A stretch of 52,255 nucleotides of DNA. Source: Lachnospiraceae bacterium. Its GTDB lineage: Bacteria; Bacillota; Clostridia; Lachnospirales; Lachnospiraceae. The position numbers and the translations under genes were made by a program. The stretch covers positions 1 to 52,255 of the forward strand of contig JAFXQR010000026.1 of assembly GCA_017526985.1 (NCBI GenBank). The letters run 5' to 3'. Below, piece by piece: positions 578-30,427 of the stretch (the first letter of the stretch is position 1; each line of letters opens with the position of its first letter). The notes under the pieces are model-generated. The model made no database searches and had not been told where the DNA came from. It was given only the letters and a program-made list of their open reading frames with translations.

Positions 578-1222
578 ATGTCTTACGATAATCCGGTGAT
601 ACGATTCTTAAATAAACTGACGGATCTGATCTTTTTGAATTTTCTCTTTTTGGTATTCTCTCTTCCGGTAGTAACGATGGGAGCGGCACTGAGTGCGATG
701 TATGCGGTCAATCTGCGTTCGGTCCGGGAAGGGGATGGCTATGTGGCAAAACGGTTCTGGAAAGCGTTTCGGGAAAGTTTTTGGCAGGCGACGGCGGCGT
801 GGCTGATGGTTCTGCTCTGCGCGGGGATCCTGTTTTTGGACTTTCGTTTTTGGCAGGCATCGGAAGCGGGGATGACGGCCAAAGGAATGCTGTTGCTCTC
901 GGGCGGCATCGCGCTGATCCTTTGGATGATCTCACTGTGGGTTTTTCCGGTGATCGCAAAAATGCGGGATCCGCTTAAAGTGCAGATCACAAATGCGGCC
1001 AAGATGGCATTTGCGTTTTTCCTGCCGCATACCGCTGTGTGTATGCTTTTGTGTGCAGGCGCGGCGTATCTGGCAACGATCAGTGTGAGTTTTCTGATGC
1101 TGATGGCGATCTTCGGGATCGCGTTCATCAACTGGCTGTGCAGTTTCTTTATCTACAAGGGCTTTGCAAAAGTAATAAAAGAAGACCCGATCGGGGATGA
1201 GGATTACCTCTATCCGCAATGA
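578..1222 (+). CDS. DUF624 (YesL-like) membrane protein
   Basis: A 214-residue integral membrane protein of the YesL/DUF624 family. The N-terminus carries the family pattern (NPVIRFLNKLTDLIFLNFLF), followed by about five hydrophobic segments: roughly residues 15-40, 70-92, 105-125, 145-165 and 168-190. The ATG at 578 follows a GAAAGGGAAAG ribosome site. The family is found next to sugar ABC importers and pectin or xylan genes in Firmicutes; its biochemical role is unknown. Here it directly follows an importer permease but has its own promoter. A second DUF624 gene lies at 45974-46648. Family assignment is from pattern recognition; I make no claim about activity. Confidence 0.8.
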   Translation: MSYDNPVIRFLNKLTDLIFLNFLFLVFSLPVVTMGAALSAMYAVNLRSVREGDGYVAKRFWKAFRESFWQATAAWLMVLLCAGILFLDFRFWQASEAGMTAKGMLLLSGGIALILWMISLWVFPVIAKMRDPLKVQITNAAKMAFAFFLPHTAVCMLLCAGAAYLATISVSFLMLMAIFGIAFINWLCSFFIYKGFAKVIKEDPIGDEDYLYPQ

Positions 1223-1252: not shown

Positions 1253-2170
1253 TTATTTCTCCGGGCTGTAACTGATGCTGACTTTGATATCCTGTGCATA
1301 GTTGCCGAAGGTCTTGCCGAAGATGGTCAGGCCGCCGATGTGTGCGGCGTCATCCTTGATCTCCATACGGAAGGTGAATTTGCTGTGGTTGCTGCCCTTG
1401 AACTGCTCGATATCGACATCGGAGATCTTGAGTCCGTCGATGTAGGTGCCGCTCTTGTTGATCACCAGCAGTTTTAACAGACCGTACTGGTTCCAGTTGG
1501 GGAACCACCAGTCCGGGGTGAAGATACCGCGTACATCACCGAAATCGCCGGGGGATGTCCAGGTACCCAGCTCGATGCCGTTTAAGGAGAAGGTGATGTC
1601 GGAAGGCCAGTTGCTGTTGATGCCGGGCGCTTCGGACGAAAGTTCCGCCGAGATCATGATCTGTGTGATCTCCTGCAGGGGCGGGATAAAATTCGGGATC
1701 TCATATTCCACGAAACCGCGTGTAAACCAGAGGATGTCGGCGTTGTAGCGATCCGGATGGGCAAAATAGCGGGTATCGTCCACTTCGCCGATCAGTGCGG
1801 TGGAAGTGGAAAGTCCGCAGGTCGGATATACTTTGTAATCCGAATAGTGGCCGACTTTCAGGCTGGTGGTGTAAACATTCTGATCCACGGCCTCGGAATC
1901 GAGTTCGATCAGGATCTTGTCCATGGTCAGCGTACAGATCTTCTGGTTGCCGTGTCCCCGGGAATCGTTGGATGTCGTGATCACACCGCAGGATTCCAGC
2001 TTTTTGATATGACTGGTGATCGCACCGTTGGTGATCTGCAGTTCTTTAGCGATCTCATTCATATTCATGTGTTTGTTTTTGAGTAATAGTTTAATGATGT
2101 CAATACGTACATCGGAACCGAGAGCTTTAAATAATTCTATTGCGCCGTCTAGAGATGTGATGTGTTGCAT
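1253..2170 (-). CDS. ArsR-like winged-helix transcriptional regulator with a large C-terminal domain
   Basis: A 305-residue DNA-binding regulator. Residues about 5-80 form a winged helix-turn-helix: LFKALGSDVRIDIIKLLL, then MNEIAKELQITNGAITSHIK, the usual ArsR arrangement. The remaining 220 residues are a soluble, mostly beta-rich domain I do not recognise, far longer than the roughly 100 residues of a metal-sensing ArsR, so the ligand is probably not a metal. The start at 2170 is chosen because AAGGAG lies 8 bases before it; an open frame reaches further upstream but lacks a ribosome site. It is divergent from the GGDEF-GH43 gene and shares a 308-bp control region with it, making that gene a plausible target (inference). 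Confidence 0.75.
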   Translation of the reverse strand: MQHITSLDGAIELFKALGSDVRIDIIKLLLKNKHMNMNEIAKELQITNGAITSHIKKLESCGVITTSNDSRGHGNQKICTLTMDKILIELDSEAVDQNVYTTSLKVGHYSDYKVYPTCGLSTSTALIGEVDDTRYFAHPDRYNADILWFTRGFVEYEIPNFIPPLQEITQIMISAELSSEAPGINSNWPSDITFSLNGIELGTWTSPGDFGDVRGIFTPDWWFPNWNQYGLLKLLVINKSGTYIDGLKISDVDIEQFKGSNHSKFTFRMEIKDDAAHIGGLTIFGKTFGNYAQDIKVSISYSPEK

Positions 2171-2227
2171 AAGCAGCTCCTTCTCGTAATAAAAGTTTTC
2201 TTTTTTGTAATGCGGGATATGTATATA

Positions 2228-2256
2228 AATATAGTGAATATTCCGCATAAGGTCAA
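2228..2256 (-). promoter_or_regulatory. Promoter of the ArsR-like regulator
   Basis: Read on the minus strand: TTGACC (2256-2251), a 17-base spacer and TATATT (2233-2228), about 58 bases before the regulator start. Confidence 0.5.
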
Positions 2257-2376
2257 TACAGGCGAGGGATATTTTTATAATTTTGTAAAATAGTTTGCAC
2301 ATTCGGCAAAACGACGAGAATAGAAGGGAAAAATAGTATAATCCCGCTAAACATATACATAATCGTGAACATCATA

Positions 2377-2405
2377 TTGAAAAGAGTGACGGAAGTAAAT
2401 ATAAT
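2377..2405 (+). promoter_or_regulatory. Promoter of the GGDEF-GH43 fusion gene
   Basis: TTGAAA at 2377-2382, a 17-base spacer and TATAAT at 2400-2405. It lies about 74 bases before the start codon and is a strong sigma-A match. Confidence 0.65.
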
Positions 2406-2478: not shown

Positions 2479-5400
2479 ATGGGACGTGAAACACAAGACT
2501 ACCTGACCGGATTGTACAACCGAAAGGGTATGTATGAGATCTGGAGTGAACAGATCTCGCAGCAGGAATCGGTACAGGTTCTATTTCTGGATCTGGATAA
2601 TTTCAAAAATGTAAATGATATGTACGGGCACAAGATCGGAGACCGTACATTGGTGCGTGTCGGCAGCATTCTGACGGACGGTGTGCCGCAGGATGGGGCA
2701 GTGATCCGTCTGGGCGGCGATGAATTCGTTATCATGATTCCCGGCGAAAGGGATCGTGAGGATCTGCAGACGCTGGCCGACGGGCTTTTGAATGATTTTC
2801 GGGCAGAAGCTTCCGCGGATAAAGCCTTCGGCGTGATCTCGGCCAGCATCGGGATTGTCCGGAATGCGCATACGACAGAAGGTATCGACAAACTGCTTTC
2901 CTATAGTGATACGGCGATGTATTACGCAAAGAAGGAAGGAAAGAACCGATATATCTTTTTTGATGATTATGCAGAGCAGATCCGTGAGGAGTGGGAGATC
3001 GAGAGCACGGTGGAAGCTGCGCTTTCGGAAGGACGATTCCGCCTGCTCTATTACCCGGTGATCCATCTCCAAAATGCAAGGATCATGCGCAGCGTTGCCA
3101 TGACCGTCTGGGAAAAGGAGAGCGGAGAGCTCATGTATAGCCCGCAGTACGAACAGGTACTGGAAAAGAACGGATTCATTCGAAAAGTGGATCTATATGT
3201 CTTTGAGCAGTTGTGTAAAGATTATAAGCTGATCCGGCGGGCGGTCGGTACACAATCTGTCGTGGGGATCCGCTTGTCCCCTTTGACACTGGAAGAGGAT
3301 GCGGTCAAAGTTCTCTGCAGTATCACCAAAAAGTATCGTATTCCCGAAGCAGGGCTGGAATTGCTGATCGACGAGCGGTATCTGGGCGGACGCAGTGCGG
3401 AACACCTGCGCAGCAGTCTGCATCGTTTGAAAAATGCCGGTTTTTCGATCGGCCTGATGAATTTCGGAGAAGATTTTTCCGCATTCCGTTTTTTGGAAAG
3501 CCTGCCGATCTCCACGGTCTTTTTTGATAAAGACTATGTTATGGGGGATCGAAAGGAAGAGGAACGGCAGAGCATTTTGTATACCTTGTTCCATCTGACG
3601 AGGAATATGCAGCTGTTCAGTATCGGACAGGGTGTCCGAAGTATAGAGGATGTAGAGTTTCTGCTGGAAAACGGCTGTGACGGAGCGACCGGAAGTTATT
3701 ACGGGGAGTGCCGTACGCTGGAGGAATATACGGCGTATCTGTCCAGGATCACCGGAGAAGAGAAAGTATATCGCTACGATTTTTTCAATAATTTTGCCAC
3801 CACGCAGGGGGAATGGCCGGGGAAGACGATCGGCGGAGGTATGGAGTTTGTATCGGGCGTCTCCGTGGCCCATGGCGGGCTGAGTTTCGGCGGCGGACCG
3901 GTGAATACCAATCTGGTCGAATTGCCCGGGGAACTGTTGCGCGGAGGCAGTTTTACGATCAGTATGTGGGTGCGCCCGCGGGAAGTGCAAAACTGGACCA
4001 GTGCATTTTATGCGCGGACCCAGGGCGGGTTTATCTCGTTTATGCCCACAGTAAGCGGGAATGTATGTATGTTTCGTATGCATGCGGACGGGGACGTACC
4101 CTGGACCGATGTTATGACGGAAGCGATTCCCATCGGAAAATGGAGTTATGTTGCGCTGGTCTATGACGCGTTCAACAATATGATACGCCTGTTCATTGAC
4201 GGCAAGCTTGCCGGGATGCGAGGCTCTGTGCCGAAGATCGGAGGCGCTTCGCATATATACCTGGGCGGAGACTGCTATCAGATATCCTATCGCGGCAATC
4301 TGTCGGCTCTGAGTTTTTATGATGTGCCGTTAACGGATGAGCAGATCGCCCGCAGTTATACGGAATACAAAGAGGAACAGGGATTTTGCGGGGATGAGGA
4401 AGCCGAAGCGGAGGCCGAATACGAAATCCACGATCCGGCTGTTTTTGAGGATCCGGTCTCCGGACGGTTTTATATCTATGCGACTCATATGCAGGGACTG
4501 GTTTCGGAGGATCTGGAGCATTGGACGCCGTTGCCGAAGTATGTAAAAGTGCCGTGGGAAGCGGAGGTCTGGACCGGTTCGGACGATATCTGGGCACCGG
4601 ATATCGTAAAGGTGGGCGATGAGTACCGGCTGTATTGCTCCAATTCCACCTGGGGGACACGCAAATCCTGCATTTTCCTGGCGGTTTCCGATCAGGCGGA
4701 GGGGCCGTTTGTACCGCGTGATATTGTCATAAAAACCGACGATTCGCTGGATGTAAACGGGATCGATGCCAATATCGTTGAAGATCATGAAAGCGGAGAG
4801 CAATATCTGCTGTATGGATCTTTTTGGGGCGGTGTGCATCTTTTGCCGCTGGATAAGGAGAGCGGTCTGGCGAGGGATCGCGGCCCGGATGGGTGCGGTG
4901 TAGGCAGTATCCGGCTGGATCCGCGGTATATGGCAGGGACCAAGATACAGGACCTGCCCCGGGAAGAACAGGAGCGCCGCCGGGGGATCTGCCTGGCGCG
5001 GCGACCGCTGTGGACGGACGGGGCGATCGAAGGCCCGTACATGATCTACTGCCGGGAGACGGGATATTATTATCTGTTCGTATCCTATGGCTCTCTGATG
5101 AGTGATTATAATATCCGCGTAGGACGCAGCCGGAAGGTGACGGGACCGTTTTTGGATTACTTCGGCAACGATCTGGCGGATACGGAGGATCCGGATTGCA
5201 GCCGGGGGCTTTTGATCAGCGCCGGATATCGCTGGCTGACCGGAATGCCGCATATGGCGCCGGGGCACAATTCGGTGTTGCAGCGGGAAAACGGCGAGCT
5301 GTTTCTGGTTTCTCATATTCGAAAAATGCGTTTTCTGGAAGACGGTTGCGGGCCGGGGCTGTTACAGATCCGTCGCCTCTACACGACTCCGGACGGCTGG

Positions 5401-5745
5401 CTGATCGCCGGTGCACAGCCCTATGCGAGAGAAACCTTCCGGATCGCAAGACCGCCGGTGATCCCCGGGGTCTATGAGCGGATCGAATTGCGTCCGGCAG
5501 TTCCGCAGGGGATCGCGCATGCGCATCCGTTGATCCTGCATGAAGACGGCCGGCTGGAGAGTTGTTCGATCCGGGGCAGCTGGAAACAGATCGACGAATA
5601 TACGCTGGAGTTCACCTACGGCCCCGTAACGGAATATGTGCATGTGGAAAAAGGCCTGGATCATGATATCAACCGGACAACAGTGCTTTTGTCGGGCCTG
5701 AGCGATCGCGGGATATGCACTTGGGCCAAAAAACAGGTGTCATGA
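2479..5745 (+). CDS. GGDEF - degenerate EAL - LamG-like - GH43 arabinanase-like fusion protein
   Basis: 1088 residues, no signal peptide or membrane segment, so cytoplasmic. Residues 7-165 are a GGDEF domain: DYLTGLYNRKG at the start, FLDLDNFKNVND around 36-47 and an intact GGDEF at 79-83; the RxxD inhibitory site is absent. Residues 175-425 follow the EAL fold but lack its catalytic signatures: EAL is VAM (206-208), the DDFGTG loop reads MNFGED (327-332) and EGVET reads QGVRS (384-388). Residues 430-630 look like a LamG/concanavalin jelly roll. Residues 650-1000 are GH43, with base D652 (HDPAVF), modulator D763 (GIDANI) and acid E851 (EGPYMIY); SFWGG and GHNSV resemble endo-1,5-alpha-arabinanases. 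The start follows AGGGGAGGA. A cyclic-di-GMP synthase carrying its own sugar-binding hydrolase is highly unusual; a sensory role is inferred. Confidence 0.85.
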   Translation: MGRETQDYLTGLYNRKGMYEIWSEQISQQESVQVLFLDLDNFKNVNDMYGHKIGDRTLVRVGSILTDGVPQDGAVIRLGGDEFVIMIPGERDREDLQTLADGLLNDFRAEASADKAFGVISASIGIVRNAHTTEGIDKLLSYSDTAMYYAKKEGKNRYIFFDDYAEQIREEWEIESTVEAALSEGRFRLLYYPVIHLQNARIMRSVAMTVWEKESGELMYSPQYEQVLEKNGFIRKVDLYVFEQLCKDYKLIRRAVGTQSVVGIRLSPLTLEEDAVKVLCSITKKYRIPEAGLELLIDERYLGGRSAEHLRSSLHRLKNAGFSIGLMNFGEDFSAFRFLESLPISTVFFDKDYVMGDRKEEERQSILYTLFHLTRNMQLFSIGQGVRSIEDVEFLLENGCDGATGSYYGECRTLEEYTAYLSRITGEEKVYRYDFFNNFATTQGEWPGKTIGGGMEFVSGVSVAHGGLSFGGGPVNTNLVELPGELLRGGSFTISMWVRPREVQNWTSAFYARTQGGFISFMPTVSGNVCMFRMHADGDVPWTDVMTEAIPIGKWSYVALVYDAFNNMIRLFIDGKLAGMRGSVPKIGGASHIYLGGDCYQISYRGNLSALSFYDVPLTDEQIARSYTEYKEEQGFCGDEEAEAEAEYEIHDPAVFEDPVSGRFYIYATHMQGLVSEDLEHWTPLPKYVKVPWEAEVWTGSDDIWAPDIVKVGDEYRLYCSNSTWGTRKSCIFLAVSDQAEGPFVPRDIVIKTDDSLDVNGIDANIVEDHESGEQYLLYGSFWGGVHLLPLDKESGLARDRGPDGCGVGSIRLDPRYMAGTKIQDLPREEQERRRGICLARRPLWTDGAIEGPYMIYCRETGYYYLFVSYGSLMSDYNIRVGRSRKVTGPFLDYFGNDLADTEDPDCSRGLLISAGYRWLTGMPHMAPGHNSVLQRENGELFLVSHIRKMRFLEDGCGPGLLQIRRLYTTPDGWLIAGAQPYARETFRIARPPVIPGVYERIELRPAVPQGIAHAHPLILHEDGRLESCSIRGSWKQIDEYTLEFTYGPVTEYVHVEKGLDHDINRTTVLLSGLSDRGICTWAKKQVS

Positions 5746-5923: not shown

Positions 5924-6760
5924 TTGGACAAGAAAGCACTGATGATCGCTGCAAACAAAGTAAGACAGGGTATCATTACGGGTGTTTATAACGCAAAGTG
6001 CGGACATCCGGGCGGATCTCTCTCAGCGGCGGAGATCTTTACCTACCTATATTTTGAGGAGATGAATATCGATCCGAAGAATCCGAAGATGGAGGATCGT
6101 GACCGTTTCGTTCTTTCCAAAGGACATGTGGCACCGGGACTGTATTCCACACTGGCAAACCGCGGATTCTTTGATGTAGAGGCATTGAAGACCCTGCGTC
6201 ACACAGGCTCCTTCCTGCAGGGACATCCGGATATGAAGGGTGTACCGGGCGTGGATATGTCTTCCGGATCTCTGGGACAGGGACTTTCCGCCGCGGTTGG
6301 TATGGCTTTGGCAGCAAGACTGCAGAACAAAGACTACCGTGTATACTGCCTGTGCGGTGACGGTGAGATCGAGGAAGGCCAGATCTGGGAAGCAGCAATG
6401 TTTGCAGGCCACAGAAAACTGGACAACCTGGTTCTTTTCGTAGATAACAACAACCTGCAGATCGACGGTTCTCTGGATGAGGTTTGCTCTCCGAACCCGA
6501 TCGACAAGAAGTTTGAAGCATTCAACTTCTATGTACAGGTGATCAACGGCAATGACTTTGACGAGATCGCTCAGGCGCTGAAGAATGCAAGAGAGCATAA
6601 GGGACAGCCGAGTGCCATCGTTGCAAAGACCCTGAAGGGCAAGGGCGTTTCCTATATGGAGAACTCCTGCGGCTGGCATGGCAAGGCACCGAATGCAGAA
6701 GAATATGAGATCGCAATGAAGGAACTGAAAGAGGAGGAGGCAGCGTTATGTCAGATGTAA
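5924..6760 (+). CDS. Transketolase, N-terminal (TPP-binding) subunit
   Basis: A 279-codon half transketolase. With its partner it moves two-carbon units between sugar phosphates in the non-oxidative pentose phosphate pathway, in the cytoplasm. The thiamine diphosphate site is complete: GDG at 145-147 and DNNN at 174-177, about 26 residues later. H28 (CGHPGG) and H68 (SKGHVAPG) match conserved active-site histidines. The start is a TTG at 5924, chosen because AAGGAG lies 7 bases before it and no ATG is better placed. The stop overlaps the start of the C-terminal subunit gene by 13 bases, indicating translational coupling. Split transketolases are common in Clostridia and Archaea. Confidence 0.95.
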   Translation: MDKKALMIAANKVRQGIITGVYNAKCGHPGGSLSAAEIFTYLYFEEMNIDPKNPKMEDRDRFVLSKGHVAPGLYSTLANRGFFDVEALKTLRHTGSFLQGHPDMKGVPGVDMSSGSLGQGLSAAVGMALAARLQNKDYRVYCLCGDGEIEEGQIWEAAMFAGHRKLDNLVLFVDNNNLQIDGSLDEVCSPNPIDKKFEAFNFYVQVINGNDFDEIAQALKNAREHKGQPSAIVAKTLKGKGVSYMENSCGWHGKAPNAEEYEIAMKELKEEEAALCQM

Positions 6761-7686
6761 AGAAGATCGCAACCAGAGACAGTTACGGTAATGCGCTGGC
6801 AGAATTGGGCGCAGAATTCCCGAACCTTTATGTGCTGGATGCCGATCTGGCAGCAGCAACCAAGACCAGTACTTTTAAGAAAGCATTTCCGGAACGTCAT
6901 ATCGACTGCGGTATCGCAGAGGCAAATATGACCGGTATCGCAGCAGGTCTTGCTACCTGCGGTATCGTTCCGTTTATCAGCAGTTTTGCAATGTTTGCGG
7001 CAGGCCGTAACTTTGAGCAGGTTCGTAACTCCATCGGTTATCCGCACCTGAATGTAAAGATCGGCGCTACCCACGCAGGTATCTCCGTTGGTGAAGACGG
7101 TGCCAGCCACCAGTGCAACGAGGATATGGCGCTGATGCGTTCCATCCCGGGTATGGTAGTCATCTGCCCGAGCGATGATGTGGAAGCAAAGGCTGCTGTT
7201 CGCGCAGCATACGAATATAACGGTCCGGTATATCTGCGTTTCGGCCGCTTCGGTGTGCCCGTGATCAATGACAATGCAGATTACAAGTTCGAGATCGGCA
7301 AGGGTATCACCCTGAAAGACGGTTCCGATATCACCATCGTAGCAACCGGTCTGTGTGTATCCCAGGCTCTGGAAGCAGCAGAGACACTGGCAGCAGAAGG
7401 CGTAAGCGCACGCGTGATCAACATCCACACCGTAAAGCCGCTGGATGAAGAGCTGATCATCAAGGCTGCAAAGGAAACCAAGATGCTGTTCACCGTAGAA
7501 GAGCATTCCATCATCGGTGGTCTGGGCAGCGCAGTTTGCGAGTGCCTGGCAGAGAATCATCCGGCAAAGGTGGTTCGTATCGGTATGCGTGACCGTTTCG
7601 GCGAGTCCGGCCCGGCAGCAGAGCTGATCCACAAGTATGGTCTGGATGCAGAAGGCATCGTAAAGACCGTAAAGGAAAACATCTAA
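6748..7686 (+). CDS. Transketolase, C-terminal subunit (pyrimidine and C-terminal domains)
   Basis: A 312-residue partner of the preceding subunit. Residues 5-165 form the pyrimidine-binding domain, with the catalytic glutamate E58 in DCGIAEANMTGIAAGLA; residues about 185-310 form the transketolase C-terminal domain (SDITIVATGLCVSQALEAA). The start follows GAGGAGG inside the upstream gene. The pair probably acts as a heterotetramer. Its place just upstream of the kinase and AraD genes fits pentose use, since arabinose and xylose enter metabolism as xylulose 5-phosphate, a transketolase substrate. A terminator follows at once, so the kinase and epimerase are likely a separate transcript. Confidence 0.95.
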   Translation: MSDVKKIATRDSYGNALAELGAEFPNLYVLDADLAAATKTSTFKKAFPERHIDCGIAEANMTGIAAGLATCGIVPFISSFAMFAAGRNFEQVRNSIGYPHLNVKIGATHAGISVGEDGASHQCNEDMALMRSIPGMVVICPSDDVEAKAAVRAAYEYNGPVYLRFGRFGVPVINDNADYKFEIGKGITLKDGSDITIVATGLCVSQALEAAETLAAEGVSARVINIHTVKPLDEELIIKAAKETKMLFTVEEHSIIGGLGSAVCECLAENHPAKVVRIGMRDRFGESGPAAELIHKYGLDAEGIVKTVKENI

Positions 7687-7921: not shown

Positions 7922-7948
7922 AAGATCGGAGATATGAGGAGGAACAAT

Positions 7949-9532
7949 ATGAAAGAAATAATCGAAAGCGGAAAGACAGCCCTTGGTATCGAGTTCGGCT
8001 CCACCAGAATCAAAGCCGTTCTGATCGATGAAAAAGGCGCAACACTGGCATCCGGCAGCCATGGCTGGGAGAATCAGTATGAAAACGGCGTATGGACCTA
8101 TAGCCTGGATATGATCTGGAACGGTCTGCAGGACGCATATGCAGAACTGGCAGCCGATGTGCAGAAGCAGTACGGCGTACCCTTGAAGAAGATCGGATCC
8201 ATCGGATTTTCCGCAATGATGCACGGATATATGGCATTTGACAAGAACGGCGAACTGCTGGTTCCGTTCCGTACATGGCGTAACACGATCACTGAGGAAG
8301 CAGCCGGCAAGCTGACCAAGGCGCTGGGCTTCAATATCCCGCAGCGCTGGAGCATTTCCCATCTGTATCAGGCGATCCTGAACAAAGAAGATCATGTGAA
8401 GGACATCACCTTCTTCACCACACTGGCAGGCTATATCCACTGGAAACTGACCGGTGAAAAGGTGCTGGGTGTGGGTGATGCATCCGGTATGTTCCCGATT
8501 GACTCTACGACCGGAGATTACAACAAGGCTTATGTAGCAAAGTTTGATGAGATGATCGCTCCCTGCGGTTTCGCATGGAAGCTGGAAGATATCCTGCCGA
8601 AGTCACTTTCCGCAGGTGAGGCAGCAGGTACTTTGACCGTAGAAGGCGCAAAACTGCTGGATGTGAGCGGTGAGCTGGAAGCCGGTATCCCGCTGTGCCC
8701 GCCGGAAGGCGATGCAGGTACCGGTATGGTAGCGACCAACAGTGTGGCGGGACGCACCGGTAATGTATCCGCAGGTACTTCCGTATTTGCCATGATCGTT
8801 ATGGAAAAAGCGCTGAAGGGCGTGCACGAAGAGATCGATGTAGTGACCACGCCGGAAGGTAAGGATGTGGCAATGGTACACTGCAACAACTGTACTTCCG
8901 AGATAAATGCGTGGGCAAAACTGTTTGCCCAGTATTCCGAGGCCATGGGTATGCCGGTGGATATGGATAAGCTTTACACCACGATGTTTACCGCAGCCAT
9001 GAGCGGCGCACCGGATTGCGGCGGTCTGATGGGCTTCAACTACTTCTCCGGAGAGCCGGTAACCGGTTTTGCGGAAGGCCGTCCGGTATTTGCCCGTTCC
9101 GTAAACGCAGACTTTTCCTTTGCGAACTTTATGCGTCTGCAGCTGTTCTCCGCGTTGAGCACTTTGAAGTACGGTATGGACATCCTGTTTAAGGAAGAAG
9201 ATGTAAAGGTAGACTGCCTGTATGGCCACGGTGGTTATTTCAAGACGAAGGAAGCAGGCCAGCGCATTCTTTCCGCAGCCGTAAACGGCCCGGTGACCGT
9301 TATGGAGACCGCAGGAGAAGGTGGTGCGTGGGGGATCGCCCTGCTGGCACTGTATATGACCAAGAAGATAGGATCTCTTTCCGATTTCCTGAAGAACGAG
9401 ATCTTTGCAGGTCAGGAAGGCAGCACCGTAACGGCTACCGCAGAAGAAGTTGCCGGATTTGACCGGTTTATGCAGGCATTTGTGAAGGCTCTGCCGTTGG
9501 AGAAAGCTGCCATCGAGTCTATTGCAGAGTAA
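7949..9532 (+). CDS. FGGY-family carbohydrate kinase, ribulokinase-like
   Basis: A 527-residue cytoplasmic sugar kinase. The N-terminal phosphate loop is [15 protein letters not shown] (residues 13-27), and the catalytic aspartate is D255 in [14 protein letters not shown]. From memory, the sequence resembles the Bacteroides arabinose-operon kinase group rather than classical AraB. It most likely phosphorylates L-ribulose to L-ribulose 5-phosphate, because AraD, which uses that product, follows 244 bases later; xylulokinase activity is the alternative. The start at 7949 is chosen over an in-frame ATG at 7934 because GAGGAGG lies between them, correctly spaced for 7949. No arabinose isomerase gene (araA) is in the window. 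A cre-like site and two dispersed repeats lie upstream. Confidence 0.85.
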
Positions 9533-9776: not shown

Positions 9777-10472
9777 ATGTTAGAAGAACTCAAAGAAAAA
9801 GTATATTTAGCAAACATGGAGCTCCCGAAGCGCCATTTGGTAACTTATACCTGGGGCAATGTCAGCCAGATCGACCGCGCATCCGGTCTGTTCGTCATCA
9901 AGCCCAGCGGCGTGGACTACGAGACCATGACGCCGGATGATATGGTAGTCATGGATCTGGACGGCAACCGTGTGGAAGGCCGTTACAAACCGTCTTCCGA
10001 TACACCGACCCATCTGGAACTGTACAAGAAGTACGAAGGCATCGGCGGTGTGGTACATACCCACTCTCCGGAAGCAACTTCCTGGGCGCAGGCCGGCCGC
10101 AGCATTCCTCTGTACGGTACCACACATGCGGATTATTTCTTCGGTGAGATCCCTTGCGCGAGAAGCCTGACACCGGAGGAGATCAACGGTGCTTATGAGA
10201 CCAATACCGGTCTGGTGATCATCGAGACCTTTGAAAAACTGGGCATCAATCCGCTCTATACACCGGGCGTACTGTGCACCAATCACGGTCCCTTCACCTG
10301 GGGCAAGGATGCTTTTGAGGCGGTACACAATGCAGTGGTGCTCGAAGAAGTGGCTAAGATGGCACTCAAGACCGAGCTGATCAACCCGCAGGTAAAGCCG
10401 GCACCGGACTGCATCCGTGACAAGCATTTCTTCCGTAAGCATGGTGAGAATGCCTATTACGGACAGAACTAA
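9777..10472 (+). CDS. araD: L-ribulose-5-phosphate 4-epimerase
   Basis: A 231-residue class II aldolase-family zinc enzyme converting L-ribulose 5-phosphate to D-xylulose 5-phosphate, the last step of bacterial arabinose use. Residues match the E. coli AraD site with an offset of one: D75, H94, H96 and H170 as metal ligands, D119 and Y228 as catalytic residues. The length equals that of E. coli AraD. The ATG at 9777 follows AGAAAGGAACC. The kinase upstream supplies its substrate, and the split transketolase can take its product. No araA is nearby, so the isomerase must be encoded elsewhere. Confidence 0.95.
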
Positions 10473-14282: not shown

Positions 14283-16046
14283 TCAGTTGTTCTCCGCTAC
14301 CTTTTCTGCGATGTACAGGAACTCTGCGCGGAAGTCATCGGTCATCACCTTCGGATCTTGTTTCAGACGATCGATGATGTCGTCGTAGGTGGAGGTGCCT
14401 GCATATTCGGAATCTCTCAGCAGCATTCCGAACTGCGCCACACCGGCCGCCCAGGAAGTATCGTTATCCATGGTGTCACTGATCATATCTTTGGTGACCG
14501 GATAGGTTCGCAGCTCACTGGTATTGCCGTCCGGCTCTTTGTAACGGATGTTGACGGCCAGCAGCTCGTCACTGTTATCCGTGGACACTGCATCATTGCC
14601 ATAGCGGGAATCTACCCCGGGGATCTCAAATGCGGAATCGTTCAGGACCACCTCATACAGTACGGTCACACACTGGTCGGAACCAACCTCGCCGCCGTCC
14701 TTGGTATCATCCGCAAAATCTTCTGCAGCCATTGCGCGGTTTTCATACCCCACCAGACGATAACCCTTTACCTGCGCGGGATTAAATTCCACCTGGAATT
14801 TTACATCCTTTGCCACGGTATACAATGTCGACCACATCTCGTCTTTCAGTACTCGCTCTGCTTCTGCGCTGCAGTCTACGAATGCATAGTTGCCGTTGCC
14901 GTGATCTGCCAGCGCTTCCATCTTGTCATCCTGATAGTTGCCTTCCCCAAAGCCTAAGCAGGATAAGAATACGCCGCTTTCTTTTTCGTCTTCGATCAGT
15001 TCGATCAGACCGGACTCGGAAGATACACCCACATTCAGATCGCCGTCCGTTGCCAGGATCACACGGTTGTTGCCGCCTTCAATAAAGTATTTCTCTGCGA
15101 TCTCATATGCTTTCTTGATACCGCCTTCCCCGTTGGTGGAACCGTAAGCTTCCAGATCATCGATCGCATCTATGATCTTCTGGTGCTCATCTCCGCGTGC
15201 GCCTTCCAGGGCCACTTCGCAGGTACCTGCATAGGTGACGATGGATACGGTATCGTTCTGAGTCAGTTCTGCCTGCAGTGTCTTGAAGGCTTCCTGCGCC
15301 AGCGGCAGTTTGTTGTTGTTAAACATGGAACCGGAGGTATCGATCAGAAATACGATATTGCTGCCTTTTTCCGGAGCGACTTCTTCCGCTCTTACACCCA
15401 CACGCAGCAGCAAGGTATCGTCATTCCACGGGCAGGGTGTTACGGATGTCACGACACCGAATTTTTCACCGTCTGCCGGCTTTGCGTAATCGTAGTTGAA
15501 GTAATTGACCATTTCCTCGATACGGATCGCATCGCCGCTGATACCGAAACCGTCATTCTGGTATACACTGCGGCGGAAGTTAGAATACACTGCGGTATCT
15601 ACATCGGCGCCAAAAGTAGAGAATGGCTGGGTATTTACGGATACAAAACCGGATTCTTTGATCGCGTTGTAGTTTTCGGTGTTCCAGTCTACATCATGCG
15701 TAACTCCGACATAGCCGGTATTGCCGTTTGATATGGACTGCGTTGTTGCTCCGGATACTGCTGCCGCATCACACTCCTCTGTGCAGACCGTTGCCGAAAA
15801 CATCATCATCCCGCCATTCGAGTACTCGTAATCATAGGAATACAGGCCATCATAACGCTCGCCCACTTCTTTGATCCGCGCATTGATCTCGCGCTGGCTG
15901 TAATGCGGTGCCTGTGTCGGCGTTGGTGTGACTTCTCCGCTTGTAACCACATGACCGGCCAGAGTACCGCGGCTTGCCGCCTGCGGACCGCATGCTGCAA
16001 GGGTGATGGTCATCAAAAATGCGACTGCCAGATTTCTTTTCTTCAT
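14283..16046 (-). CDS. VWA-domain lipoprotein, YfbK-like (leftward paralogue)
   Basis: A 587-residue predicted surface lipoprotein. The signal peptide MKKRNLAVAFLMTITLAAC ends in a lipobox with C19. A Thr/Pro-rich linker with PTPTQAP follows. Residues about 135-195 form the VWA N-terminal extension (FSTFGADVDTAVYSNFRRS), then the VWA domain with MIDAS motif DTSGSM at 236-241, and a C-terminal DUF3520-like domain (from about 420). The start at 16046 is set by GGGAGGAATTG. It is divergent from a paralogue whose VWA and C-terminal regions are very close in sequence, while the first 120 residues differ strongly. YfbK-like proteins are thought to bind metal-dependent protein ligands; the partner here is unknown. 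Confidence 0.9.
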   Translation of the reverse strand: MKKRNLAVAFLMTITLAACGPQAASRGTLAGHVVTSGEVTPTPTQAPHYSQREINARIKEVGERYDGLYSYDYEYSNGGMMMFSATVCTEECDAAAVSGATTQSISNGNTGYVGVTHDVDWNTENYNAIKESGFVSVNTQPFSTFGADVDTAVYSNFRRSVYQNDGFGISGDAIRIEEMVNYFNYDYAKPADGEKFGVVTSVTPCPWNDDTLLLRVGVRAEEVAPEKGSNIVFLIDTSGSMFNNNKLPLAQEAFKTLQAELTQNDTVSIVTYAGTCEVALEGARGDEHQKIIDAIDDLEAYGSTNGEGGIKKAYEIAEKYFIEGGNNRVILATDGDLNVGVSSESGLIELIEDEKESGVFLSCLGFGEGNYQDDKMEALADHGNGNYAFVDCSAEAERVLKDEMWSTLYTVAKDVKFQVEFNPAQVKGYRLVGYENRAMAAEDFADDTKDGGEVGSDQCVTVLYEVVLNDSAFEIPGVDSRYGNDAVSTDNSDELLAVNIRYKEPDGNTSELRTYPVTKDMISDTMDNDTSWAAGVAQFGMLLRDSEYAGTSTYDDIIDRLKQDPKVMTDDFRAEFLYIAEKVAENN

Positions 16047-16303
16047 AAACAATTCCTCCCAGTATTCTCTATCCGTGACACTCATTTTGGTCACGCTGTT
16101 GTGCTGTTGATAGAGGTACGAAAAGTGAATGAGATTTTTATGGAAGAATTTATATTTTTTTGAAGTTTTTTATGAAGAAAAGCCATTCGAAAAAATTTTT
16201 TCCAAAACCCCATAAAATTCCCTATCCTCATCCGTATCTTAATCAAAAGAAAAACGTTTTTCCAAAACAGTTCACAACAATTCACTCATCGGAGGATAAT
16301 GAT

Positions 16304-18094
16304 ATGAAGAAACGAAATTTTGCAGTAGCACTGCTACTGGGTGTTATTCTTGCGGCCTGCGGCAATACAGAGTCACAATATTCACAGGAAGAGATCGATG
16401 CGCGGGTACAGGAAGTAGGGGAATCTTACAACACTGAAGCGGAGATACCAAACGTGCCGGCGGATGCGGTGCATACCAGCGTTCTTACGGCCTCGATGGA
16501 TCCTCAATTAAAATCAACAAATGCCAGCGGGGTTCAGTTTCAGGTTGTCGGAAACAACAAAGTGAGTGTCTGGGTTTCGGGCAGTGACAGCAGGGGATAC
16601 CAGCCATACTATGGAAGTGTCATACCGAATGTGAATGATGTTGCCCGGAATACCGAGGACTACAACAGTATTAATGAAGATGGTTTTGTGTCCGTAAGCA
16701 CCCAGCCGTTTTCGACCTTTGGAGCGGATGTGGATACGGCAGTCTATACCAACCTGCGTCGCAGCATTATGCAAAATGACGGTTACGGTATCCGTGGAAA
16801 TGCGATCCGTGTGGAAGAAATGATCAATTATTTTGATTATGATTATACAAAACCGGCAGCAGGGGAAAAGTTTGGTGTAGTGACGGATCTGGCGCCCTGC
16901 CCGTGGAATGCGGACACCCTATTGCTCCGTGTGGGTGTACGAGCAGAAGAAGTGTCAATCGAAGAAGGCAGTAATATTGTATTTCTGATCGATACTTCCG
17001 GCTCTATGGATAGTCCGGACAAACTGCCACTGGTGCAGGAAGCGTTTAACAAACTACAGAAAAATCTTACGGCAAATGATACGGTGTCAATTGTGACTTA
17101 TGCCGGCAGTTATTCGGTACCGCTGGAGGGTGTTGGTGGCAATGAACATCAGAAAATTGAAAATGCGCTTTATAGCCTGATGGCGGGGGGATGCACCAAT
17201 GGCGAGGGTGGTATCACAAAGGCTTATGAGGTCGCGGAGAAATATTTTATCGAGGGCGGCAACAACCGTGTGATCCTGGCTACCGACGGGGATCTGAATG
17301 TGGGTATTTCTTCCGAGGCAGGGCTCATCGATCTGATCGAAGAGAAAAAAGAAAGCGGAGTATTCTTATCCTGCCTGGGCTTTGGTGAAGGCAACTATCA
17401 GGATGCCAAGATGGAAGCGATGGCAGATCACGGTAACGGAAACTATTCCTATATCGATTGTGATGCGGAGGCGGAACGCGTACTGACCAAAGAACTTTGG
17501 TCGACGCTCTATACTGTGGCAAAGGATGTAAAGTTTCAGGTGGAATTTAATCCGGATCAGGTGAAGGGCTATCGACTGGTGGGCTACGAAAACCGGGAAA
17601 TGGCAGCAGAAGATTTTGCGGACGATACGAAAGACGGCGGTGAAGTCGGTTCTGACCAGTGCGTGACGGTGTTGTATGAAGTGGTATTGAACGACTCTGC
17701 TTTTGAGATCCCCACTGTGGAATCCCGTTATGCGGACGACGAAGCATCAACAGATATCAGTGATGAGCTCCTGGCCGTCAATATCCGCTACAAAGAGCCG
17801 GACAGCGATGTGAGTCAGTTACGCACCTATCCGGTGACAAAGGATATGATCGGTACCACCATGGACAGCGATACTTCCTGGGCAGCCGGTGTGGCACAGT
17901 TCGGAATGCTCCTTAGAGACTCGGATTATGCGGGTACCTCCTCTTATGACGATATCATTGCCCGTCTGGAACAGGACCCGAAGATCATGAATGATGATCT
18001 TCGCGCAGAGTTTATTTGCCTGGTGGAGCAGGTGAAAGATAATGGTTTTGATTATTACAGTCAGAGTGCGGCACCGTCTATTATAATACAATGA
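16304..18094 (+). CDS. VWA-domain lipoprotein, YfbK-like (rightward paralogue)
   Basis: 596 residues. Lipobox cysteine C19 (GVILAAC) follows a short signal peptide. After a variable region (25-120), the shared core begins at FSTFGADVDTAVYTNLRRS. The MIDAS motif is D230-T-S-G-S-M235. The C-terminal third matches the DUF3520-like domain of the divergent paralogue, with long identical stretches such as EFNPDQVKGYRLVGYENR. The start at 16304 follows CGGAGG; an in-frame upstream ATG at 16160 would add a 48-residue AT-rich, basic extension with no ribosome site, and is rejected. The 257-bp gap between the two genes is AT-rich; an imperfect GTGAC/GTCAC dyad lies near the leftward start. A bidirectional terminator follows. 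Confidence 0.9.
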   Translation: MKKRNFAVALLLGVILAACGNTESQYSQEEIDARVQEVGESYNTEAEIPNVPADAVHTSVLTASMDPQLKSTNASGVQFQVVGNNKVSVWVSGSDSRGYQPYYGSVIPNVNDVARNTEDYNSINEDGFVSVSTQPFSTFGADVDTAVYTNLRRSIMQNDGYGIRGNAIRVEEMINYFDYDYTKPAAGEKFGVVTDLAPCPWNADTLLLRVGVRAEEVSIEEGSNIVFLIDTSGSMDSPDKLPLVQEAFNKLQKNLTANDTVSIVTYAGSYSVPLEGVGGNEHQKIENALYSLMAGGCTNGEGGITKAYEVAEKYFIEGGNNRVILATDGDLNVGISSEAGLIDLIEEKKESGVFLSCLGFGEGNYQDAKMEAMADHGNGNYSYIDCDAEAERVLTKELWSTLYTVAKDVKFQVEFNPDQVKGYRLVGYENREMAAEDFADDTKDGGEVGSDQCVTVLYEVVLNDSAFEIPTVESRYADDEASTDISDELLAVNIRYKEPDSDVSQLRTYPVTKDMIGTTMDSDTSWAAGVAQFGMLLRDSDYAGTSSYDDIIARLEQDPKIMNDDLRAEFICLVEQVKDNGFDYYSQSAAPSIIIQ

Positions 18095-18104
18095 TCGCAA
18101 TATC

Positions 18105-18145
18105 AAAAAAACTTCCCCCTGCCGAAAACAGGGGGAAGCTTTTTT
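18105..18145. terminator. Bidirectional terminator between VWA and TIR genes
   Basis: A perfect 10-bp stem, CTTCCCCCTG (18112-18121) with 18129-18138, is flanked by an A-run on the left and a T-run on the right, so it can stop both convergent transcripts. Confidence 0.85.
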
Positions 18146-21100
18146 AATTGATGTTGTATTCGACTTTCTCGGCATTACTAAGTTCTGCTCCCGGGAACTG
18201 CCGCGCGGTTTCTTCGATGAGCGTCTGGTAGTCTTTGTAATAGCAACGGTATACCGTACCATCTACATACTGAATGAAGCTGTTGTTGTTGGTTATGTAG
18301 GCGACGCAGTCCGGGACATAAGCGCACAGACCGTATTGTGTCGTGTCCATCAGATACAGACTGTAGCCGGTGATCAGCGCAAACCTATGATCTTCCGGAT
18401 CGGACACGATATCTTTGATATAGGAATTGGTGGAAAAGGAGTTGATATACTCTTCTTTTTCCACATCCCAAATGCGGAAGATATAATCATTTCCCTGCAG
18501 GAACAAGTAATGACCGTCCTCCGAAAAACGAATGAAACTGCCCTTGTTGATCTGCATAGGCAGCCCGCCACTCAAGGTGTCTGTTGCGGTATCCAGGATC
18601 CATACTTTCTGGTCCAGACAACTCATAGCGATATATCTTGCGTCTGGGGACAGGGCCATATATTCCATTCCGTAATAATCGGATACTTCCTGCAGACGAT
18701 CGTCATAACTGTGTATTTCGCCGGTGGCCGTATCTGTGGAATACAGGCTCCGGCTTTTTGCGGAGATAAAGACCGTGCTGCCGTCTCCGGAAGGAATGGC
18801 CGTTCCGACGGTCTCATCTGTCTTTGTATGGAAGATGCAGCATTCTTTTTTCATATCCACTACATACAGTTCGGCGCCATTACTGAAAGCGCAGAAATTA
18901 CCATTCGCGGAAAAATGCGCTTTCGTGATCAGGTTTGTATCAATTCCCAGTTCTTCATAAGAGAGAAATCTGTCGCTTCCGGTAATGGGATCCACACTCT
19001 GTACGCCTTCTCTGCTGGCAATAAGAAAGACATTGTCGCAAAAGCTGTCAGCGATAGTATAGCCGTGATTTTCGGTCTGAAAGATCTCATTACCGTCGGG
19101 ATCATAGTAGTGGTAGCCGGTACTGTCTCCGGTGACTGCCAATATATAGTAATCACCGGCCGGGGAAACGCCTGCGGAGGACAGGCCCGGGGTGGTCTGC
19201 GGCAGTGTTTCCTGATCGGGTGCGGTCTGGGCGGACAGGATATAGATATTCTTATCATACTGTGCCCGTGCAACAAAGGTGCTGTTGATGGCTATCAGGT
19301 CCGCCAGATAGTTGATATGCATGTTGGAATTACTATCATAAAGCCTGCCGATCTCCATATTTCCCAGCTGGATATCGCCGTTTGTATAGGCAATAAAAGC
19401 ACTGGCGGAATTGATGCCAAGTAACATGGATACGGCATTTGCGGGGAGTGGCATTTCCGTGATCAGGCGACCGTCTGCTTCGTCAAAGGTAAATACTTTG
19501 TCTTCGGCCGAAACGACAATGCCGGAGCGTTCTCCGTCATCTACGGGATAGGTATGGGAGCGGATCAGGGTGTTGAAACGCCCCATATCAAAGATGTCGG
19601 GATCTACAGTCTGTGTCCACAGTTTCTCGCCGTTCGGGGAAAACAGATCAAGGGTCATGGAGGTCATTTCGTCGAGGGCATAATAATCTGCAGGACAGCT
19701 GAGTGCTGCGACATTTCCGTTGATCGTGGTGTTAAACTGCAGCATATCATCTTCCGAAAGCAACGCATTATGGTAATCACCGGTCTCTGTATGCAGGAAG
19801 GTGATCGCAGCATGTACACCATCGAGCGTACTGTGTCCGACGACCAGCAGGCCGGTGGTATTGTCGTATTTTACCTTGCTGTTAAACTTTCCGGGCATTT
19901 CGTTGTTGTAGGTTGCCGTGATACTGCCGTCAGAGAGTTGTATTACCCAAATGTTTTCGCCATCGATCAGAAAAGCAACGCCCCGTTCGGGATCAATGGC
20001 ACTACCCTGCAGGCTGCCGCTGCCCGGGGCTTCTATGCAATATTGCAGCGCACCGGCGACATCATACACATAGAAATACCGATAGGTCATCACATAGATC
20101 CGTTCGGCATCGGCATCCGCGATCAGCACATCATCGTAATAATTATCCCGGATTTCCGGAGCAATATGGACGGTCTCTTCCCAGGTATCTGTAGTCCAGA
20201 CATGCACATTGTTGCTCTGATCGAGTGTGATCAGGTAGCTGCTGTCGTAATTCTTCCAGAATTTGGATACCGGAAGTTCATGTTCCAGATTTTTGTAGTA
20301 ATCCCGGATCTTTCCGTCATCGTAGACATGCAGGGCACTGCTTAGGGCATATTCCGCTTCAGCAACATACGGGCGTTTTTCTGTATCAGAGGGCAGGCCG
20401 GCACAGGCAACCAGCGCGGCTTGTTTGCGATAGCCTTCGGATAACAGGCTCATAGCCTTGGAAGCATAAAAACGTGACTGGTTGATCTGCTTGTCACGGT
20501 TTTCCTGCATAAAATCCAGTGCCAGAGTGGCATTTTCATTGGCCAGGGAACCTTTTTCCTGCGCCAGGGATTCCATCTGTTTTGCCACTTTTGCACTGTA
20601 AATACCGAAGGCTGCACCTGCGCCGCCTGTGACCAGAGCGGTGAGTGTCACATACGCGATGGTCTTGCGGATCAGACGCTCGCGATGGCGCTGTCGCAGA
20701 TCGTCGAAACTGCAGCCGATGACCGGTGCGGCCAGGCGTAACAGTTCGGTCTTGAATTTGTGATTGCGTTCTTTTTTATCAGTACCACGGATGTCTGCGG
20801 CCAGTGGTTCCACCGGATGTCCGTTTTCATCGGTAAGAAGCGCGGGGGGAAAACTGTCTTCCGGTTCGCCATCGATCAGGATCGCAAGCACATGGGAACG
20901 ATCATGCATTTCGATAAAGGTTTCGATCTCTTTCCGTACCCATTCCGATCCGGGTGTTTCCGGAGAACATACGACGATCAGATATTCGGTTTCCTTCAGA
21001 GCCGCATTGATCTTGTCGGTTAAGTTGCTGCCGATGGGCAATTCTTCCTGATCGCGGAAGACCCGGCGGATCTTCTTTTTGCCGGTTTTTTTCTGCACGG

Positions 21101-30279: not shown

Positions 30280-30427
30280 TTCCTTGTGTTCAATCTCTAA
30301 AGAAGGTGTAAATGTTTGTATTTTAGGGGAAAGCATCAAGAAAACAAATCAGTTTTTGCAGCGGTTCGGTAAGGCCGGCCTTTATTTTGATGTATAAAAC
30401 TAAGAATTCCTGATGCAGGAGGAAGAA

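What the first reader, a model, noticed from the sequence alone, without database searches (positions are those of the whole stretch)
2479..5745. Cyclic-di-GMP synthase fused to a LamG-GH43 arabinanase-like enzyme
One continuous frame holds an intact GGDEF domain (79-83), a degenerate EAL domain, a LamG-like domain and a GH43 domain with all three catalytic acids (D652, D763, E851). There is no signal peptide, so the hydrolase part would be cytoplasmic. GGDEF proteins usually carry PAS, GAF or membrane sensors; here the sensor may be a glycosidase and jelly roll that bind or cut imported arabinan oligosaccharides, coupling sugar supply to cyclic-di-GMP. This is the best candidate in the window for an undescribed signalling system.
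Basis: partly seen in the sequence, partly recalled or inferred. Interest (0 to 1): 0.88.

Follow-up and report, generated by a model that had tools for sequence, protein, structure and literature searches.

The report
Arabinan-cutting cyclic-di-GMP sensor protein
A bacterium whose close relatives live in ruminant stomachs carries one cytoplasmic protein that joins a domain for making the signal molecule cyclic-di-GMP to a sugar-binding domain and an enzyme domain for cutting the plant polymer arabinan, which suggests a direct wire from food sugar to the cell's attach-or-swim decision.

Summary
Window 2479-5745 is one open frame of 1088 aa: GGDEF, EAL, LamG, GH43 and GH43_C. It is no assembly error: full-length copies exist in three other assemblies of the genus (99, 99 and 74% identity) and one of another genus (51%, L057). 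The GGDEF motif is intact; the EAL domain has lost all eight catalytic positions checked. The GH43 triad (D652, D763, E851) is intact and GH43 has the lowest dN of the five domains against L011. Hydropathy shows no signal peptide or membrane segment.

New here: it belongs to a Lachnospiraceae family of EAL-LamG proteins, nearly all with GGDEF. Of 20 compared, 6 form one clade with intact GGDEF and dead EAL, 3 of them carrying GH43; the other 14 keep EAL residues. The LamG domain's best solved relative is Domain4 of Geobacillus arabinanase AbnA, which binds arabinopentaose. The gene sits in an arabinan and L-arabinose locus. Best reading: a cytoplasmic arabino-oligosaccharide sensor that sets cyclic-di-GMP and consumes its own ligand. 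Ligand control is inferred, not shown.

The parts
2479..5745 (+). GGDEF-EAL-LamG-GH43-GH43_C fusion gene, 1088 aa, cytoplasmic
   Evidence: full-length homologues
2494..2949 (+). GGDEF domain (aa 6-157), motif GGDEF intact at aa 79-83, no RxxD I-site in this copy
3010..3705 (+). EAL domain (aa 178-409), all eight catalytic positions checked are lost
3907..4350 (+). LamG (Laminin_G_3) domain (aa 477-624), related to Domain4 of arabinanase AbnA; W542 aligns with AbnA Trp758
4432..5400 (+). GH43 catalytic domain (aa 652-974), acids D652, D763, E851 and H930 intact
5422..5727 (+). GH43_C domain (aa 982-1083)
2377..2405 (+). promoter-like site TTGAAA-17-TATAAT, also seen by eye in the aligned upstream stretches of L009, L010 and L011
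   Evidence: consensus match only; 7 promoter-like sites in the region, 5.8 expected from shuffles
1253..2302 (-). divergent ArsR-type winged-helix regulator, 349 aa, C-terminal part without Pfam match
   Evidence: (90% identical beside the fused gene in L011; 67% in L060; 43% in L074)
578..1222 (+). DUF624 protein, part of the arabinan locus
5924..6760 (+). transketolase N-terminal subunit
6748..7686 (+). transketolase C-terminal subunit
7934..9532 (+). FGGY sugar kinase (best NCBIfam XylB, below cut-off; ribulokinase role inferred from AraD next to it)
9777..10472 (+). AraD, L-ribulose-5-phosphate 4-epimerase
   Evidence: 380.9 bits, cut-off 257

Best explanation
It is a cytoplasmic one-component sensor of arabino-oligosaccharides. 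Secreted arabinanase lipoproteins cut arabinan outside the cell and an ABC importer brings the pieces in (genes shown, roles inferred). Inside, the LamG domain binds them as AbnA Domain4 does, and the GH43 domain binds and cuts them. Occupancy of LamG and GH43 shifts the GGDEF-EAL core, whose dead EAL serves as a dimer or relay scaffold, and so raises or lowers cyclic-di-GMP synthesis by the intact GGDEF. The GH43 activity removes the ligand and feeds L-arabinose to AraD, so the signal should last only while oligosaccharide keeps arriving. The likely outputs are type IV pili and flagella, since the two cyclic-di-GMP-I riboswitches found in this genome precede pilin-like genes and a YcgR-type PilZ protein lies among chemotaxis genes. 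Shown by sequence: architecture, intact GGDEF and GH43 sites, dead EAL, family, locus. Inferred: activity, binding, coupling, its sign, and output.
For: Domains and intact motifs. Conserved fusion in 5 distinct assemblies of 2 genera, three of them near-identical. Purifying selection: dN/dS against L011 is GGDEF 0.191, EAL 0.134, GH43 0.081; LamG and GH43_C could not be scored, dS saturated. LamG's best PDB relative is AbnA Domain4 (4e-12 by sequence, 3e-16 by profile), which binds arabinopentaose in the crystal and arabinan with Kd 7.7-11.1 uM (PMC9110388 passages). GH43's best solved relatives are arabinanases. Locus: GH43, lipoprotein GH43 with GH43_C, solute-binding protein, ABC permeases, DUF624, ArsR-like, the fusion, transketolase, FGGY kinase, AraD. 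The related L060 protein sits inside a locus of the same make-up, with GH43 on both sides and a chemoreceptor. Family genes lie near GH43: 7 of 19 non-fused within about 5 kb, 1.1 expected. Outputs exist: two RF01051 riboswitches over cut-off with terminators and pilin-like ORFs behind them (N_methyl over cut-off), two PilZ proteins.
Against: No activity, binding or coupling was measured. L057, the most distant fused copy, is not in an evident arabinan locus: four neighbours tested are PLD-like, AcrB-like, one without a Pfam match, and AMP-binding. The fusion is patchy: 4 of 35 genomes of the genus (window included) and 1 of 7 of L057's genus. In 12 of 19 non-fused cases no GH43 within 5 kb is listed (a cut list). 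Of 16 loci with stand-alone GH43 orthologues, none shows a GGDEF-EAL neighbour and only L105 a LamG piece; L058 is the one tail-to-tail pair. Among the near-copies L009 and L010 the EAL domain has the highest dN/dS (0.37 and 0.76, few changes). Structure prediction did not resolve LamG or GH43 (mostly pLDDT under 50), so domain contacts are unknown. The I-site is absent in the window and L057 but present in L011, so feedback control is not conserved.
Confidence: 0.5

Rival explanations
1. Reverse control: the GGDEF-EAL half senses or makes cyclic-di-GMP locally and this sets the activity of the GH43 half, so the second messenger gates intracellular arabinan digestion.
For: Cyclic-di-GMP binds and activates a glycogen-debranching enzyme in Streptomyces, GlgX (PMC9530166 abstract). 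GH43 has the lowest dN of the five domains, so its activity matters.
Against: The EAL pocket has lost its catalytic residues and the RxxD I-site is absent in the window and L057 copies, so no known cyclic-di-GMP receptor site remains in them except the GGDEF active site. The wider family has the signalling half with LamG and no hydrolase.
Confidence: 0.17
2. Plain tethering: two enzymes that are needed together share a chain for joint expression or placing, without allosteric coupling.
For: In L058 the same kind of GH43 (54% identical) is a separate gene tail to tail with a GGDEF-EAL-LamG gene, so the fusion may only replace neighbourhood.
Against: The LamG domain, an arabinan-binder relative, is fused to the signalling core in the 19 family proteins scanned whether or not GH43 is present (they were picked by LamG), which is the layout of a sensor.
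Confidence: 0.2
3. GH43 acts only as a receptor (pseudo-enzyme) that binds but does not cut.
For: Glycosidase and carbohydrate-binding domains are used as sensors in RsgI-type anti-sigma factors (recall; only starts of abstracts in a listing and review passages seen).
Against: The catalytic acids and the metal-site histidine are intact in window, L011, L057 and the stand-alone L058 enzyme.
Confidence: 0.1
4. Assembly or annotation artefact joining two genes.
For: The window is from a draft assembly of 220 contigs.
Against: Same junction in L009, L010, L011 and, at 51% identity, L057.
Confidence: 0.01

Closest known systems
GGDEF-EAL tandem proteins such as MorA, RbdA (PA0861) and DosP (names MorA and RbdA recalled; PDB hits 4rnf, 5xgb, 9clo)
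   Same: GGDEF followed by EAL, matched over about 390-415 aa
   Different: Those carry PAS, heme or membrane sensors in front (recall); here the sensor side is C-terminal LamG-GH43 and the EAL is dead
AbnA, extracellular GH43 arabinanase of Geobacillus stearothermophilus (5ho0, 5hon; PMC9110388)
   Same: GH43 with an extra domain behind it and a ConA-like Domain4 that binds arabino-oligosaccharide
   Different: AbnA is secreted, has the ConA-like domain at the C-terminus and no signalling domain
AbnB/Abn2 (YxiA, 3lv4, 2x8f) and BT0367-type arabinanases
   Same: GH43 plus C-terminal domain; among the nearest solved or modelled relatives of the hydrolase part
   Different: Single enzymes; scores here are below the NCBIfam equivalog cut-offs
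GlgX of Streptomyces with cyclic-di-GMP (PMC9530166, abstract)
   Same: Direct tie between cyclic-di-GMP and a glycoside hydrolase
   Different: There a separate hydrolase is the receptor; here cyclase-type and hydrolase domains are one chain
RsgI-type anti-sigma factors of cellulolytic clostridia (recall, listing)
   Same: Carbohydrate-active or carbohydrate-binding domain used as a sensor
   Different: Extracellular sensor on a membrane protein releasing a sigma factor; here cytoplasmic and second-messenger based
EIIA-Glc with PdeS of Vibrio cholerae (PMC8846402 passages)
   Same: Sugar supply linked to cyclic-di-GMP
   Different: Works through phosphotransfer and a separate phosphodiesterase

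Membership tests
Diguanylate cyclase (GGDEF, PF00990) | Profile match and intact GG(D/E)EF with metal and substrate residues | tested here: met
   120.6 bits, cut-off 23.8; D38, N46, D55, GGDE and K151 invariant in the 15 sequences of A1 (15 of the 20 distinct ones, the three with degenerate GGDEF were not in it; residue roles recalled)
Diguanylate cyclase (GGDEF, PF00990) | RxxD inhibitory site five residues before GGDEF (optional; recalled) | tested here: not met
   P70-G73 in the window; L011 has RQTD; L057 lacks it
Diguanylate cyclase (GGDEF, PF00990) | Makes cyclic-di-GMP from GTP | not testable with these tools
   needs assay
Cyclic-di-GMP phosphodiesterase (EAL, PF00563) | EAL-N-E-DD-K-E-Q catalytic residues (recalled set) | tested here: not met
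   0 of 8 in the window, L009, L010, L011, L059, L060; 1 of 8 in L058; 2 of 8 in L057
GH43 arabinanase | Asp base, Asp modulator, Glu acid and metal-site His in a GH43 profile match | tested here: met
   106.7 bits, cut-off 32.2; residues; roles from PMC9110388 passage on AbnA
GH43 arabinanase | NCBIfam equivalog cut-off for BT0367 or AbnB type | tested here: not met
   181.5 of 800 and 134 of 750 bits
GH43 arabinanase | Hydrolyses 1,5-alpha-L-arabinan | not testable with these tools
   needs assay
AbnA Domain4-type arabinan-binding domain | Sequence relation to Domain4 | tested here: met
   4.1e-12, profile 2.9e-16; the next different molecule is pappalysin at 3.3e-7
AbnA Domain4-type arabinan-binding domain | Binds arabino-oligosaccharide | not testable with these tools
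   W542 aligns with AbnA Trp758; binding itself untested
RsgI-type membrane carbohydrate sensor | Transmembrane segment and extracellular sensor | tested here: not met
   best 19-aa hydropathy 1.03

The most novel reading that the evidence does not exclude
A self-clearing second-messenger sensor: a cyclase whose own chain holds both the receptor for and the enzyme that destroys its sugar ligand, so that cyclic-di-GMP reports the flux of arabinan pieces into the cell. It would belong to a new class of lectin-type (LamG) cyclic-di-GMP enzymes in Lachnospiraceae that has split into a GGDEF-intact, EAL-dead branch and an EAL-intact branch, both with members in arabinan loci, and that sets pili and swimming by food.
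Probability: 0.38. Interest if true: 0.88.

Novelty: new variant of a known kind. Interest (0 to 1): 0.76.

Why it matters
Many GGDEF and EAL proteins have unknown inputs (general knowledge). In the passages I saw of a review of cyclic-di-GMP sensing (PMC8846402) the direct sugar example is EIIA-Glc with PdeS, and jelly-roll 7TMR domains are a prediction. A LamG domain related to a proven arabinan binder, fused to intact and to opposite catalytic outputs, gives a specific testable ligand class. It would tie plant-fibre digestion in the rumen to attachment and motility decisions and give a ready biosensor design.

Tried and rejected
Assembly error: rejected by independent copies. Active EAL phosphodiesterase: rejected by residues. 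Secreted enzyme: rejected by hydropathy. Decaying GH43 passenger: rejected, GH43 has the lowest dN of the five domains and the lowest dN/dS of the three that could be scored. Spread beyond Lachnospiraceae: the class search found 1 of 391 genomes (the window's own) and the order search 4 of 392 at E 1e-15; the one hit outside the family (G942, two tandem ORFs) looks secreted by its start and shows no GGDEF motif in the stretch held. Even within the family only 16 of 397 genomes have a strong hit, so these draws are weak negatives. Structure prediction of the full chain: poor from one sequence (mean pLDDT 35.0) and useful only for GGDEF-EAL with 12 rows (50.9); no fold search was run. Neighbours of stand-alone GH43 orthologues: no GGDEF-EAL beside them in 16 loci; L105 has a contig-cut LamG piece, an ORF without Pfam match and a GH43. 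PMC5457731, which ascribes alpha-glucosidase activity to a GGDEF protein, concerns a HAMP-GGDEF protein (passages), so it is not a precedent of this architecture. PMC7112168 (passages) and PMC6912079 (one passage) gave no such protein. Riboswitch sign (on or off) was left open: terminators follow both aptamers and single-strand folds do not settle it.
Full report
1. The observation. The ORF at 2479-5745 (+) is 1088 aa in one frame. Pfam, all over cut-off: GGDEF 6-157, EAL 178-409, Laminin_G_3 477-624, Glyco_hydro_43 652-974, GH43_C 982-1083. Hydropathy shows no signal peptide or membrane segment.

2. It is real. A tblastn-confirmed scan of one genome per species gave 13 loci with a relative; 3 of the 13 are full length: L009 (99%), L010 (99%, sheep omasum) and L011 (74%, water deer rumen). 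In a different genus (G074), L057 is full length at 51.6% identity over 1084 aligned codons, with a TTG start as drawn. In that genus 1 of 7 genomes has it. So the fusion is real but patchy.

3. A wider family. The LamG region was searched in 397 family genomes: 28 have a match at E 1e-5. In 16 of these the best match is at E 1e-20 or better. I fetched larger stretches around 20 places and gave 19 proteins to Pfam, counting L057 and L076 (= L011): 18 of 19 have GGDEF, EAL and LamG, and one (L071) EAL and LamG only. L073 is a broken copy and was not scanned; L105 is cut by a contig end. The weaker hits (L041-L052) lie in ORFs without a convincing GGDEF motif (motif search only).

4. Two catalytic branches. 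In the alignment of 22 sequences, window, L009, L010, L011, L057, L058, L059 and L060 have intact GGDEF and a dead EAL: of eight catalytic EAL positions they keep 0 (window, L009, L010, L011, L059, L060), 1 (L058) or 2 (L057). The other 14 keep the EAL glutamate and most other residues, with one replacement in L061 and in L063 and two in L072. In L062, L068 and L071 the aligned GGDEF is degenerate (L062 has two GGDEF matches). A tree of 20 EAL-LamG sequences (L009 and L010 dropped as near-copies) makes the six EAL-dead sequences one side of a branch at 100/100, and the three GH43-fused ones a subset at 100/99. The tree is rooted at the midpoint for drawing only. The inhibitory RxxD site is absent in the window and L057 and present in L011, which speaks against a conserved product feedback.

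5. The hydrolase. The GH43 acids and the metal-site histidine are intact in window, L011, L057 and in a stand-alone 461-aa GH43 beside the L058 family member. Against L011, dN/dS is 0.191 (GGDEF), 0.134 (EAL), 0.081 (GH43) and 0.104 (whole); synonymous change is saturated in LamG and GH43_C; dN is lowest in GH43. Against the near-copies L009 and L010 the EAL ratio is the highest (0.37 and 0.76, few changes), in keeping with a domain under looser constraint. Its best solved relatives are arabinanases (4kc7, YxiA/Abn2 3lv4 and 2x8f); NCBIfam arabinanase models match but far below their equivalog cut-offs. Orthologues occur in the family: 19 of 397 genomes have a match at E 1e-40, window included. 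The starts of the stand-alone ones show no obvious signal peptide (by eye on open frames). Of these 19 genomes 10 are also among the 16 LamG-family genomes, 0.77 expected by chance; thresholds were picked after seeing the data and the genomes are related, so this is a lead only.

6. The LamG domain. Its best solved relative is the C-terminal Domain4 of the extracellular arabinanase AbnA of Geobacillus (5hon, 4.1e-12; profile 2.9e-16). In passages of PMC9110388 Domain4 is a ConA-like sandwich with arabinopentaose bound in its concave cleft among aromatic residues, and isolated Domain4 binds sugar-beet and linear arabinan with Kd 7.7 and 11.1 uM. W542 aligns with AbnA Trp758. W506, F518, R533, W542 and D544 are invariant in the 15 sequences of alignment A1, 15 of the 20 distinct ones.

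7. The locus. In L010, a 99% copy, the order is GH43 (337 aa), lipoprotein-like GH43 with GH43_C (513 aa), solute-binding protein, ABC permease, and then, read from L009, L011 and the window, a second permease (L011), DUF624 and the divergent ArsR-like gene before the fusion. In the window's own genome the first three lie at the end of another contig (C178). After the fusion come transketolase halves, an FGGY kinase and AraD, the last over cut-off. In L060, a GGDEF-EAL-LamG gene without fused GH43 stands between two GH43 genes of a locus of the same make-up, with solute-binding protein, two permeases, DUF624, a chemoreceptor and an ArsR-like gene 67% identical to the window's. L069 and L074 have arabinofuranosidase-type genes near. 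Within about 5 kb, 7 of 19 non-fused family genes have a GH43 (scored by hand from the list, which was cut), against 1.1 expected, P about 5e-5 under independence; L064 and L065 are near-copies, and contig ends were ignored. Results against: L057 stands among unrelated genes as far as tested, and for 12 of 19 no GH43 that close is listed.

8. Outputs in this genome. Two cyclic-di-GMP-I riboswitches exceed the gathering score (61.3 and 57.7 bits, gathering 35). Each is followed by a terminator-like hairpin and then an ORF with the N-terminal methylation motif of type IV pilin-like proteins over cut-off. Two PilZ proteins exist; one is of YcgR type and is followed by CheB and CheA-like genes. 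A search with the whole window protein gave 58 matches in the genome, all but the gene itself and one GH43 within its GGDEF-EAL half, so this is one input among many.

9. Mechanism. Shown by sequence: one chain with an intact cyclase motif, a dead EAL, an arabinan-binder-type LamG and an intact arabinanase site, in an arabinan locus. Inferred: that it makes cyclic-di-GMP, that arabino-oligosaccharide binding sets the rate, that GH43 ends the signal, and that pili and flagella are the output. The sign of control is not predicted.

10. Novelty. Searches of the paper library for GGDEF with LamG (0 papers), EAL domain with concanavalin A-like and GGDEF (0), GH43 with diguanylate cyclase (8 papers; titles and abstract starts read, passages only of PMC5457731 and PMC6912079), and the wider ones (41 papers, 20 listed; 1; 201, 15 listed; 9) showed no description of such a protein. 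The library lacks most subscription papers and all preprints. I rate it a new variant of a known kind: a GGDEF protein with an undescribed input module.

Noticed in passing
window 18144-21200 (-): 1018-aa protein with an N-terminal TIR domain (TIR_2 and ThsB_TIR matches) and C-terminal WD40/PQQ-type propeller matches, most of the latter below cut-off; a possible defence-type protein, 59% identical to an ORF in L011 downstream of the same locus.
   Followed up: no
window 14283-16094 (-) and 16160-18094 (+): Two related ORFs in opposite orientation, the first VWA/YfbK-like by Pfam (the second was not scanned); a single ORF in L011 matches them at 89 and 67%, suggesting a duplication with inversion.
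   Followed up: no
window 1253-2302 (-): ArsR-type regulator whose C-terminal two thirds match no Pfam family; relatives stand near family members in L011, L060 and L074. It may be the sugar-responsive transcription factor of the locus.
   Followed up: partly
L127 871-1640 (-) and L128 974-1835 (+), own genome: Two cyclic-di-GMP-I riboswitches with terminators in front of pilin-like genes; by eye the 5' part of each aptamer can pair with the terminator's 5' arm, hinting at an off-switch.
   Followed up: partly
L060 1440-3530 (-) and L059 5876-7594 (+): Methyl-accepting chemotaxis proteins in the same loci as GGDEF-EAL-LamG genes of the EAL-dead branch.
   Followed up: no
L073 3307-4728 (G129): A GGDEF-EAL-LamG gene broken by stop codons, in a genome with two intact family members.
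   Followed up: no
L061-L075: EAL-intact members of the family; four of them (L066, L069, L072, L075) lie within about 5 kb of arabinanase-like GH43 genes, so the same LamG module seems tied to phosphodiesterase output as well.
   Followed up: partly
window 30413-33391 (+) and 37621-40278 (+): A 992-aa protein with a solute-binding domain match only in its C-terminal part, and an 885-aa DUF5696 protein, in a region that also holds GH43 genes at 23778 and 27403.
   Followed up: no
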